Shown here one piece after another: positions 4,415 to 45,729 of a stretch of 64,000 nucleotides of DNA. A model generated the notes under the pieces. That model saw only the letters and a list, made by a program, of their open reading frames with translations. It ran no database searches and was not told where the DNA came from. Origin of the DNA: an uncultured Pseudomonadales bacterium (lineage in GTDB: Bacteria > Pseudomonadota > Gammaproteobacteria > Pseudomonadales > Balneatricaceae); contig CALKFY010000039.1 of assembly GCA_938084925.1 (NCBI GenBank), forward strand, positions 29,070 through 93,069, read 5' to 3'. How positions within the stretch are numbered: position 1 is the stretch's first letter; the number at the start of each line of letters is the position of its first letter. Position numbers and translations under genes: made by a program.

Positions 4415-4885
4415 TCCTATTTACGCTGTAGTTTAATCTGTGGTCCCTAGGCCTGGCTTGTGAGTACAGGCCCGGGTGATAAATCTTTTTCTGTCCTAAA
4501 AAGCAGGCAGAAAAAGAATTTCACCCTGTCCTCCATCTCACCGTGCTAGTCTCTAGGGGGCCCAAGATTCCTAGACGAGCGCTGTAGTACTAATGTGCCA
4601 TTCGCGGCTGCAGGTATGTGCGAGCTAAAGGGCTACGTAGCTCGTCATCGAGTCTTGGGGATCTATCGGCGGCACTTGATGAATAAATGATCTGGGTGCA
4701 ATTCTTTTGTGCCCGTATTTTGGGCCAACAAAAGAATTGCACCCAGATAAAAATTCTCAGAGGTCAGATAGGGAACCACAAGACTTAAATTGAGCTGAGT
4801 AGGTGGGGGAAGTACTTCGAAGCTGCCACTGAGCTATATTTATATGGTAAAATCGCCGCCAAATTAAGTAACCAAAGCAATCCCC

Positions 4886-17771: not shown

Positions 17772-18206
17772 TTGTTTAATGGGTACAATTCGTTTGCCAA
17801 TGAAGGCAATGTTTTTTTGATGGACGTGTTGATGAGCGGTGAAAACTTTAAAGGCGTAACCCATATGCTTGAGCAGATGGAAGCGTTTGTGGAGAAAACT
17901 GAACAGGGCCTTAAACAAGGTCGTGAGCGAGTAGGTAAGCTGCGCACGCAATATCAAACGCTAAAGGCAAGTGAAACTGTGCTGAAGCAACAGCAAGAAA
18001 AGACATTACCTTCAGAGCCTGAATTAAAGGCTCCAGTTAATAAAATACAGCAGCCTGCTGCAGAACCTGCCGCCCTTAAGGCGGAAGCTCCAAAATCACC
18101 CACTAAGCGAGTATTACGAGCTAGCCCTAGCCAGCCCGACTCGGAACCGTCACCAGAAACTGAAATACAGCATGAATCAACAGAACGAACCTACCTCCGA
18201 AAATAA
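17772..18206 (+). CDS. Hypothetical coiled-coil protein upstream of proQ (start uncertain: 17772, 17820 or 17832)
   Basis: 'MSGENFKGVTHMLEQMEAFVEKTEQGLKQGRERVGKLRTQYQTLK...' then a Pro/Ala-rich tail; overlaps proQ start by 35 nt in another frame. Confidence 0.55.
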   Translation: MFNGYNSFANEGNVFLMDVLMSGENFKGVTHMLEQMEAFVEKTEQGLKQGRERVGKLRTQYQTLKASETVLKQQQEKTLPSEPELKAPVNKIQQPAAEPAALKAEAPKSPTKRVLRASPSQPDSEPSPETEIQHESTERTYLRK

Positions 18207-18828
18207 TTCCGTAACGCCAGAAGTAGAAGCACCTGCAGTAGTCGCTGCTGAGTCTGCGACTCCGGTAGCTAATGAAGCCGCCGCAGCTGAGCGCAAAAAA
18301 GCCAAAAGTCGCGCTGCTAACAGGGCTGCGGTTCAGTTGCTTTGCGAAACCTATCCGCAAACCTTTGCGATTTCTGAACCTAAGCCTTTGAAAATTGGTA
18401 TTCAGGAAGAGTTGGTTGCTGATGGCAAGCTTAGTCAAAATAAGATTAAGCGTGGTCTAGCTAGTTATGTGCGTGCGTACGCTTATTTGCGTTCACAAAC
18501 TGATGGTGCTGCACGTGTTAACCTTGCTGGTGAAGCAGATGGTGCGGTAACGGCAGACGAGGCCGCACATGCGGTGAGCAAGTTGCCAGCTCAGCGTGAG
18601 CCTAAGCCGCGTAACAAGAATGCTCGCGCGGGTGATAAGTCTGGTGACAAGCGCGGTGCACGTCGTCCTAACAAGACAGCAAAGCAGTCACAGCAACGTC
18701 AAGCTCATGCTAAGCAAGCCCGTCAAGGTCAGCCTAAGGTGGAAAAGGCAGATAATCCTTTCCAAGGTTTAGACGATGGTCAGCGCATGGCAAGCAAGTT
18801 AGATCTGTTGTTGAGCAAACATAAGTAA
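18172..18828 (+). CDS. proQ: ProQ/FinO-family RNA-binding protein
   Basis: 218 aa; 'VQLLCETYPQTFAISEPKPLKIGIQEELVADGKLSQNKIKRGLASYVRAYAYL' matches the FinO/ProQ domain; basic tail. Confidence 0.88.
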   Translation: MNQQNEPTSENNSVTPEVEAPAVVAAESATPVANEAAAAERKKAKSRAANRAAVQLLCETYPQTFAISEPKPLKIGIQEELVADGKLSQNKIKRGLASYVRAYAYLRSQTDGAARVNLAGEADGAVTADEAAHAVSKLPAQREPKPRNKNARAGDKSGDKRGARRPNKTAKQSQQRQAHAKQARQGQPKVEKADNPFQGLDDGQRMASKLDLLLSKHK

Positions 18829-18884: not shown

Positions 18885-18898
18885 TAGTGGTGCCACTA
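18885..18898. repeat. 14-bp near-palindromic bracketing repeat, left copy (tagtggtgccacta)
   Basis: Exact match to 19285-19298. Confidence 0.8.
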
Positions 18899-18906
18899 GC
18901 TATACC

Positions 18907-19038
18907 GGCTACAGGCAAGGTTTACTTATCTCACTTACGTCCTTGGCTGGCTCCGCCAGCTACCTTGTGCTAATCCATAATAGGTAACCATGCTCAGCGG
19001 CGTCATAATCGTTCCATAAGTAAACCTTGCCAGCAGCC
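18907..19038 (-). repeat. Short, inverted copy (A') of the dispersed arm-flanked element, central part deleted
   Basis: Reverse complement of 18930-19015 matches both ends of the 19.1-kb core (GATTATGACGC..GAGCATG and AGCTGGCG.AG.CAGCCAAG) but lacks the GCGCGAGGACTG..CCGCAGCGCCCATGG middle. Own arms 18907-18929/19016-19038, 21/23 paired. Confidence 0.8.
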
Positions 19039-19082
19039 TCTGCACTAGGTCATAACAATCGATAACACTCGCACTTAGCTAA

Positions 19083-19271
19083 AGCCATTATGCCGTTGCC
19101 CTTGACCGATTATGACGCAGCCGAGCATGACGGCTAGACCATGGAAATAGCGCGAGGACTGTCTGAGGCGTTTTTTGCCGAGTTCCGCAGCGCCCATGGG
19201 TTAGTCGTCAGCGCAGGGAAGCTGGCGAAGTCAGCCAAGCAAGTTAGGTCAAGGGCAACGGCGTGATGGCT
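19083..19271 (+). repeat. Dispersed arm-flanked element, copy A
   Basis: Core shares 'gccgagttccgcagcgcccatgg' exactly with copies B and C. Arms 19083-19107/19247-19271: 23 Watson-Crick and 2 G.U pairs. Confidence 0.9.
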
Positions 19272-19284
19272 GTGCGGAGGTGAC

Positions 19285-19298
19285 TAGTGGTGCCACTA
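19285..19298. repeat. 14-bp near-palindromic bracketing repeat, right copy (tagtggtgccacta)
   Basis: Exact match to 18885-18898. Confidence 0.8.
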
Positions 19299-19407: not shown

Positions 19408-19734
19408 TTAGGTGTTGTCAGAGATGAAGGCCAAAAGGTCAGACTTGGACATAGCGCCAACCTTAGTGCCCGCTACTTCGCCGTCTTTGAAAAGCATCAA
19501 AGTAGGGATGCCACGAACGCCAAACCGACCAGCGACTTCGGTGTTGTCATCAACGTTGATTTTGCAAACCTTAACACTGCCAGCAAACTCAGCACCAACC
19601 TCTTCCAAAACAGGAGCAATCATCTTGCAAGGGCCACACCAAGGTGCCCAGAAGTCTAGCAATACAGGGACGTCGGAGTTGATAACGTCAAGGTCAAAAG
19701 ATGCGTCGGTAACAGCTACTGTGTTTTCGCTCAT
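19408..19734 (-). CDS. trxA: Thioredoxin
   Basis: '[19 protein letters not shown]'; start trimmed to [10 protein letters not shown] (track 19761). Confidence 0.95.
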
Positions 19735-19902
19735 GGTAAGTTCTCCTGGCTTATTTGCCACTAGGTCATTAATGGGGCATATGATACTTGGTTTTACAAA
19801 AAAACTCAGCCTTATTTAGTCGAGTTAGGCTATTTGTATCAGATTTTTCTTATATAAGGTCTGTGTTTGACTTTTCAAGACCAAATACATCAAACATGGT
19901 GT

Positions 19903-31105: not shown

Positions 31106-31298
31106 GGTGCTTGCGGGTACCCTACTGGCCGGTTATGACGCCGCCGAGCATATTGGCTAGACCACGGATAAAGCGCGAGGACTGTCTGAGGTCTGTTTTT
31201 TAGGCCGAGTTCCGCAGCGCCCATGGAATAGGTAATAGCGCAGGGAAGCTGGCGAAGCCAGCCAAGGAAGTAAGGCCAGTAGGGTACCCGCGAGTGCC
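31106..31298 (+). repeat. Dispersed arm-flanked element, copy B
   Basis: Core aligns with A and C. Arms 31106-31130/31274-31298: 22 Watson-Crick and 3 G.U pairs, sequence unrelated to the other copies' arms. Confidence 0.9.
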
Positions 31299-45533: not shown

Positions 45534-45729
45534 AGGCCATTGCTTATTTCAGCTTGTCCGATTATGACGCAGCCGAGCATGACTGCTAGAACATGGAAAT
45601 AGCGCGAGGATTGTCTGAGGCCTGTCTTTTGGGCCGAGTTCCGCAGCGCCCATGGGCTAGAAGGCACGCACAGGGTAGCTGGAGAAGCCAGCCAAGGAAC
45701 TAAGGTCAAGCTGAAATAAGCAATGGCCT
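45534..45729 (+). repeat. Dispersed arm-flanked element, copy C
   Basis: Core aligns with A and B. Arms 45534-45559/45704-45729: 25/26 Watson-Crick pairs, one U.U. Confidence 0.9.

What the first reader, a model, noticed from the sequence alone, without database searches (positions are those of the whole stretch)
18885..19298. Head-to-head pair of long and internally deleted copies bracketed by an identical 14-bp near-palindrome
Between proQ and trxA an inverted copy A' (18907-19038) lacks the central GCGCGAGGACTG..CCGCAGCGCCCATGG domain but keeps both core ends and its own arms. The full copy A (19083-19271) follows. The pair is enclosed by exact repeats tagtggtgccacta at 18885-18898 and 19285-19298. 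This could be a composite mobile unit with target duplication, or two insertions between palindromes. The short form also shows the middle domain is dispensable for whatever creates the arms.
Basis: seen in the sequence. Interest (0 to 1): 0.65.

Follow-up and report, generated by a model that had tools for sequence, protein, structure and literature searches.

The report
Empty mobile gene cassette, folded ends
The two facing repeats between proQ and trxA are the two ends of one small mobile DNA element that is empty here; in related bacteria the same folded ends enclose swappable genes, some of them resembling anti-virus defence genes, and the enzyme that moves it is unknown.

Summary
A head-to-head pair lies between proQ and trxA: A' (-), with a 69-bp internal deletion, and full-length A (+). 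Exact 14-mers TAGTGGTGCCACTA bracket it. The repeat is a fold-conserved unit with strong covariation. A covariance model finds it in 53 of 392 genomes of the order. Head-to-head is the normal arrangement: 50 of 57 neighbouring unit pairs. The pair is therefore one element with long structured ends. In other genera the same pair encloses 0.7-4.7 kb of varied cargo, including PD-Lambda-4-, UzuA- and PDC-S31-like defence genes. At one orthologous locus in two species the ends are conserved and the cargo is different. Copies 99.9% identical occur in unrelated contexts. The 14-mer is best read as the element's self-palindromic terminal repeat; a palindromic terminal inverted repeat also looks like a direct repeat. 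A target duplication is not excluded: an empty proQ-trxA site has one such palindrome, but two other empty sites have none. The short form is a deletion product, not evidence about how arms arise. No transposase was found; Y1 transposase shows no association.

The parts
18885..18898 (.). left terminal palindrome TAGTGGTGCCACTA (part of CTAGTGGNNCCAC terminal repeat)
   Evidence: same motif at the ends of other pairs in this genome (degenerate) and in BH14/G014
18907..19038 (-). unit A', left end of the element, with a 69-bp internal deletion (P3 and the 3' strand of P2 lost)
   Evidence: (18925-19020, 53.1 bits)
18907..18929 (-). outer (3') P1 arm of A'
   Evidence: inverted repeat I3
19016..19038 (-). 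inner (5') P1 arm of A'
   Evidence: inverted repeat I3
19039..19082 (.). spacer where other family members carry cargo genes; no gene here
   Evidence: gap between model matches 78 bp, typical of cargo-less pairs
19083..19271 (+). unit A, full length, right end of the element
   Evidence: 19098-19256, 139.2 bits, E 1.4e-39
19083..19107 (+). inner (5') P1 arm of A
   Evidence: inverted repeat I2
19129..19144 (+). stem P2, 5' strand, covarying
19150..19193 (+). hairpin P3 with conserved internal loop CTGTYTGA/GAGTT
19194..19209 (+). stem P2, 3' strand
19221..19235 (+). hairpin P4, covarying
19247..19271 (+). outer (3') P1 arm of A
   Evidence: inverted repeat I2
19285..19298 (.). right terminal palindrome TAGTGGTGCCACTA
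31121..31283 (+). single full unit of the same family
   Evidence: 132.8 bits
45550..45713 (+). single full unit of the same family
   Evidence: 131.3 bits

Best explanation
The pair is one cargo-less, partly decayed copy of a family of non-autonomous mobile gene cassettes. Each end is an outward-facing unit of about 150-190 nt that folds into a T-like structure: a long stem P1 of variable arms, which carries hairpin P2/P3 and hairpin P4 with conserved unpaired loops. A short self-palindromic terminal repeat follows each unit (CTAGTGGNNCCAC in this genus, TCGCCCNNNNGGGCGAAA elsewhere). SHOWN: the conserved fold; head-to-head pairing as the rule; gene cargo in other genera; different cargo between conserved ends at one orthologous locus; near-identical copies in different surroundings. 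INFERRED: a recombinase supplied in trans by the host or another element recognises the folded ends and moves the element; homologous recombination between dispersed ends exchanges the cargo. In this copy the cargo is absent and the left unit has lost its central hairpin.
For: Covariation: 28 of 41 pairs change on both sides, score 0.431 against 0.147 shuffled and 0.07-0.12 slid. 53 of 392 genomes and 20 of 142 genera positive, a lower bound. No match in 698 kb of viral DNA picked only for a shared 15-mer. 50 head-to-head pairs against 4 tandem and 3 tail-to-tail within 6 kb. Cargo ORFs lie between pairs in L118, L119-L123, L161 and L347-L350, with PADLOC matches PD-Lambda-4 2.6e-54, UzuA 2.6e-93, PDC-S31 6.4e-48 and Pfam GFA, GNAT, GIY-YIG, DUF2971, Abhydrolase. 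At the ygiQ-methyltransferase locus of G132 and G159, flanks are 85-91% and units about 82-85% identical but the cargo is not homologous. G261 copies L357 and L358 are 99.86% identical over 1.5 kb, and similarity ends at the terminal palindromes. The window pair aligns column by column with pairs at two other loci of the same genome.
Against: No transposase or recombinase gene was seen inside any pair examined and none is associated: Y1_Tnp is in 32 of 53 unit-positive and 202 of 339 negative genomes, p = 1. Single units also exist in this genome. Exact element boundaries and target duplications are not resolved. The G261 twins could be homogenised by gene conversion between older insertions rather than freshly moved. 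Cargo was not seen in the window's own genome or genus, whose pairs are all short.
Confidence: 0.66

Rival explanations
1. The pair inserted into a pre-existing palindrome TAGTGGNNCCACTA and duplicated it; the 14-mers are a target-site duplication.
For: The orthologous BH14 site, lacking the element, has a single TTAGTGGTACCACTGA. The two 14-mers are identical on the same strand, centre TG/TG. Solo copies of the palindrome exist elsewhere in G014, some inside other repeats. L032 ends also share a centre, CA/CA.
Against: In L035 and L037 the centres are inverted (AA/TT) and in L039 different (AA/TA). Terminal palindromes of other genera match mainly as inverted repeats. Empty counterparts of two filled G014 loci carry no palindrome, and neither do other genus members at proQ-trxA. 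A palindromic terminal inverted repeat mimics a direct repeat.
Confidence: 0.25
2. The units are structured RNAs acting at the transcript level, for example as 3'-end or regulatory structures of outward transcription; mobility is secondary.
For: Conserved unpaired loops with covarying stems. In P1 arms G.T exceeds A.C mismatches on the unit-sense strand 68 to 16 (p = 9e-9, not corrected for relatedness), as expected if that strand folds as a single strand.
Against: P2 shows no such asymmetry (54 to 40, p = 0.18). Units are paired in opposite orientation and sit between convergent genes here. A folded single DNA strand would give the same signal. No Rfam match.
Confidence: 0.25
3. The units are REP/BIME-like repeats moved by a Y1 (RAYT/IS200-type) transposase.
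For: Palindromic intergenic repeats in head-to-head pairs. This genome and G014 each hold one Y1 gene, while four sampled relatives without the element hold none.
Against: No association over 392 genomes (p = 1.0), and the complete genome G222 with 12 units has no Y1 match. The Y1 genes of G000 and G014 are flanked by a different palindrome (GGGGTCTGACCCC) and no unit.
Confidence: 0.05
4. The units are atypical integron recombination sites used by IntI.
For: Cargo resembles integron cassette content (inference). IntI is commoner in unit-positive genomes: 34 of 53 against 138 of 339, odds ratio 2.6, p = 0.0017, uncorrected for relatedness.
Against: attC 7-bp cores at both ends in 0 of 121 units, shuffled mean 0.2. 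Pairs are scattered, not arrayed next to intI; in two of three intI loci looked at there is no unit, in the third it lies about 14 kb away. 19 unit-positive genomes lack a match at the IntI threshold used.
Confidence: 0.06

Closest known systems
MITEs and cargo-carrying non-autonomous transposons (MITE, MIC, TIME)
   Same: Short, gene-free or carrying cargo, terminal inverted repeats, intergenic, dispersed, apparently moved in trans; MITE transcripts are predicted to fold (PMC10969869).
   Different: The inverted repeats are about 150-190 nt with a covarying multi-hairpin fold rather than simple sequence-conserved repeats; no parent IS found; no clear target duplication; sequences of the arms differ freely between copies while staying complementary.
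Integron gene cassettes with attC sites
   Same: Small varied cargo genes including defence, GNAT and GFA types, bounded by structured sites; cargo changes while the frame stays.
   Different: Two inverted units per cassette rather than one attC; no GTTRRRY/RYYYAAC cores; single scattered elements, not arrays by intI.
REP/BIME elements with RAYT transposases
   Same: Intergenic palindromic units in head-to-head combinations, many copies per genome.
   Different: Much larger composite fold, gene cargo, no association with Y1 transposase.
IS110/IS1111 seekRNA/bridge RNA elements (PMC11187229)
   Same: Conserved non-coding structure at a mobile element.
   Different: No DEDD transposase inside any pair examined; two opposed units; cargo of unrelated genes.

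Membership tests
MITE / non-autonomous inverted-repeat transposon | no transposase gene inside | tested here: met
   No ORF of note in the window pair; cargo ORFs elsewhere include no recognised transposase or integrase. An IS481-like IS in G261 is a later insertion.
MITE / non-autonomous inverted-repeat transposon | terminal inverted repeats | tested here: met
   Opposed units plus terminal palindromes at both ends.
MITE / non-autonomous inverted-repeat transposon | target-site duplication | tested here: inconclusive
   A single palindrome at one empty site, none at two others; the G261 twins show no obvious direct repeat.
MITE / non-autonomous inverted-repeat transposon | ends match an autonomous parent IS | tested here: inconclusive
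   No parent seen among loci examined; ISfinder was not available.
Integron cassette / attC | GTTRRRY ... RYYYAAC cores at the ends of the site | tested here: not met
   0 of 121 units with such 7-mers at both ends.
Integron cassette / attC | array next to intI | tested here: not met
   Pairs are dispersed; no unit near intI in G000 and G222, one pair about 14 kb away in G261.
REP/BIME-RAYT | cognate Y1 transposase in the genome, flanked by the repeat | tested here: not met
   G222 has 12 units and no Y1; Y1 loci of G000 and G014 are not flanked by units.
Rfam RNA family | covariance-model match to a described family | tested here: not met
   No match at gathering score; weak E-value matches only to leader families and one scaRNA, judged chance.

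The most novel reading that the evidence does not exclude
A previously undescribed class of bacterial mobile gene cassette, widespread in one gammaproteobacterial order with at least one betaproteobacterial and one phage-contig example. A T-shaped folded nucleic-acid structure at each end, rather than a primary-sequence end, is the recognition site. It is moved by a yet unknown enzyme and shuffles anti-phage and other accessory genes outside integrons.
Probability: 0.33. Interest if true: 0.87.

Novelty: new variant of a known kind. Interest (0 to 1): 0.68.

Why it matters
If the reading holds, a large family of non-coding 'intergenic repeats' is really the ends of swappable gene cassettes. 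That offers a sequence-and-fold handle for finding single-gene defence cassettes outside integrons, prophages and Tn7-like elements. It also poses a concrete question: which enzyme reads a fold-conserved end whose arm sequence is free to vary?

Tried and rejected
Y1/RAYT transposase as mover: no association over 392 genomes. attC/IntI: cores absent; the genome-level IntI association (p = 0.0017) was not corrected for phylogeny and is not taken as support. A second regex for attC arrays was written with the two cores in the wrong order, so it says nothing and is not used. Rfam: nothing. Plasmid and phage collections searched with the window pair or the phage unit: no match, except short matches to the terminal hairpin in Variovorax, Caballeronia, Pasteurella and Ilyobacter; of these only Variovorax holds recognisable units. 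A 15-mer of the core scanned through viral contigs gave 120 stretches, none supported by the model among the 80 listed loci searched. Palindrome as a common REP: AGTGGNNCCACT is not enriched in G000 (3 sites); G014 has 10, no more than the reversed control. Eight literature searches by sequence and by concept found no description; no preprints and few subscription journals are held, so absence there is weak evidence.

Full report
WHAT IS THERE. Between proQ (18172-18828, +) and trxA (19408-19761, -) the window holds A' on the minus strand and A on the plus strand, 5' ends facing, bracketed by exact 14-mers TAGTGGTGCCACTA at 18885 and 19285. Both are the same repeat: a covariance model built from 26 copies scores A 139.2 bits and A' 53.1 bits. 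Two further full units lie at 31121-31283 and 45550-45713. A DNA search found 11 matches in the 2.38-Mb assembly and the model 13. The genome is a marine Oceanospirillaceae-type metagenome assembly, judged from the closest named records.

THE UNIT. The alignment and pair counts give a fold with variable P1 arms, stem P2, hairpin P3 and hairpin P4, separated by strongly conserved unpaired stretches (ACGCNGCCGAGC, GAGGACTGTYTGAGG, CCGAGTTCCGCAGCGC, GCGCAGGG, CAAG). 28 of 41 pairs change on both sides; the covariation score is 0.431 against 0.147 in shuffles and 0.07-0.12 when partners are slid. The pair counts were made on the same sequences the structure was derived from, so the slid control is somewhat favourable to it. 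The P1 arms are not made afresh by each insertion: the arms of the window pair align position by position with those of the pairs on contigs C129 and C35, diverged but still complementary.

THE SHORT FORM. Against C129 and C35, A' lacks 69 bp, which removes P3 and the 3' strand of P2. A second short form, the left unit of L032 in G014, lacks a different 67 bp. They are independent deletion products.

THE PAIR IS THE ELEMENT. Over the printed matches of 24 genomes plus a few, 57 neighbouring units lie within 6 kb of each other: 50 head-to-head, 4 tandem, 3 tail-to-tail. Forty head-to-head gaps are short (-9 to 267 bp; the window's is 78) and ten are 0.7-4.7 kb. The longer gaps carry genes: L119 (142 aa), L120 (DUF3592 protein and a 163-aa protein), L121 (148 aa), L161 (200-aa lipoprotein-like), L122 (DUF6731 protein and a 154-aa protein), L123 (1304-aa alpha/beta hydrolase-STAND-like protein, PADLOC PD-Lambda-4 2.6e-54), L347 (alpha/beta hydrolase), L348 (GFA protein and UzuA, 2.6e-93), L349 (198 aa), L350 (three ORFs, one GNAT) and the phage contig L118 (DUF2971/PDC-S31, 6.4e-48).

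CARGO CHANGES, ENDS STAY. G132 (L121) and G159 (L161) have an element at the same site between a YgiQ-like gene and an RNA-methyltransferase-like gene (named from the translations, by eye). Flanks align at 85-91% and units at about 82-85%, but the cargo does not align at all. This is the strongest single piece of evidence for cassette behaviour. It fits either dedicated recombination or homologous recombination between conserved ends.

MOBILITY. In G261 the composites L357 and L358 are 99.86% identical over 1.5 kb, and similarity stops at the terminal palindromes. Five elements of that genome carry an IS481-like insertion sequence (family judged from the ORF by eye) at the same point just outside a unit; in L359 the sequences on the two sides of the IS belong to different end types. 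Gene conversion between dispersed copies would explain this as well as transposition does. For two filled G014 loci (L175, L176) counterparts without the pair exist in relatives.

THE 14-MER. In this genus each composite ends in CTAGTGGNNCCAC; in other genera in TCGCCCNNNNGGGCGAAA, usually next to a T-rich hairpin. The target-duplication test is mixed. The BH14 proQ-trxA site without the element has a single palindrome (12 of 14 identical), as duplication predicts, but deletion of an element by recombination between its terminal palindromes would leave the same. More distant relatives have none at that site, and two other empty loci have none. At other elements the palindrome centres are mostly inverted or different between the two ends.

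DNA OR RNA. With stems called by Watson-Crick matching only, P1 arms contain 68 G.T and 16 A.C mismatches on the unit-sense strand (p = 9e-9); P2 contains 54 and 40 (p = 0.18). This hints that the sense strand folds as a single strand, RNA or ssDNA. Sequences are related, so the p-value overstates the case.

DISTRIBUTION AND PARTNER. 53 of 392 genomes of the order are positive, 20 of 142 genera (a lower bound because few candidates per genome were scored). A pair also occurs in Variovorax and in one viral contig. Y1 transposase is not associated: 32 of 53 against 202 of 339, p = 1.0. Integron integrase is somewhat commoner in positive genomes: 34 of 53 against 138 of 339, p = 0.0017, not corrected for phylogeny; but the units lack attC cores. 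The mover is unknown.

SHOWN AND INFERRED. Shown by sequence: the conserved fold, the pairing rule, the cargo, the cargo difference at one locus, near-identical copies. Inferred: recognition of the fold by an unknown recombinase in trans; cargo exchange by homologous recombination; the palindrome as part of the element. Defence function of cargo rests on family matches, not on tests.

Noticed in passing
window 4438-4781: Another palindromic intergenic element with related ends (CTAGGGACCACAG ... TTGTGGTTCCCTATC as inverted repeats) and two long hairpins, but no recognisable unit. It occupies the same gene-flanked locus as a unit pair in G014 (L176).
   Followed up: partly
L357-L361 (G261): An IS481-like insertion sequence sits at the same position, just outside a unit, in five different elements of one genome; in L359 the two sides come from different end types.
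   Followed up: partly
G014:C147 (L177) and G000:C38 (L007/L226): The right flank of a G014 pair is next to a single unit in G000, while its left flank lies on another contig of G000 and tens of kb away in G010 and G012: a rearrangement with a breakpoint at an element.
   Followed up: no
L046 (G000:C37) and L045 (G014:C11): The only Y1 transposase genes of these two genomes are bracketed by a different palindrome (GGGGTCTGACCCC type); in G014 copies of that repeat enclose solo CTAGTGGNNCCACTAG palindromes (L169, L171, L172).
   Followed up: partly
L135, L137, L138: The T-rich terminal hairpin (TTACTTTCTTT..AAAGAAAGTAA) recurs in Ilyobacter, Caballeronia and Pasteurella; the Caballeronia and Pasteurella copies lie in inverted pairs around a different core, which suggests sister families.
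   Followed up: no
392 genomes of the order: Integron integrase is commoner in unit-positive genomes (64% against 41%, p = 0.0017, uncorrected for relatedness), though units lack attC cores.
   Followed up: partly
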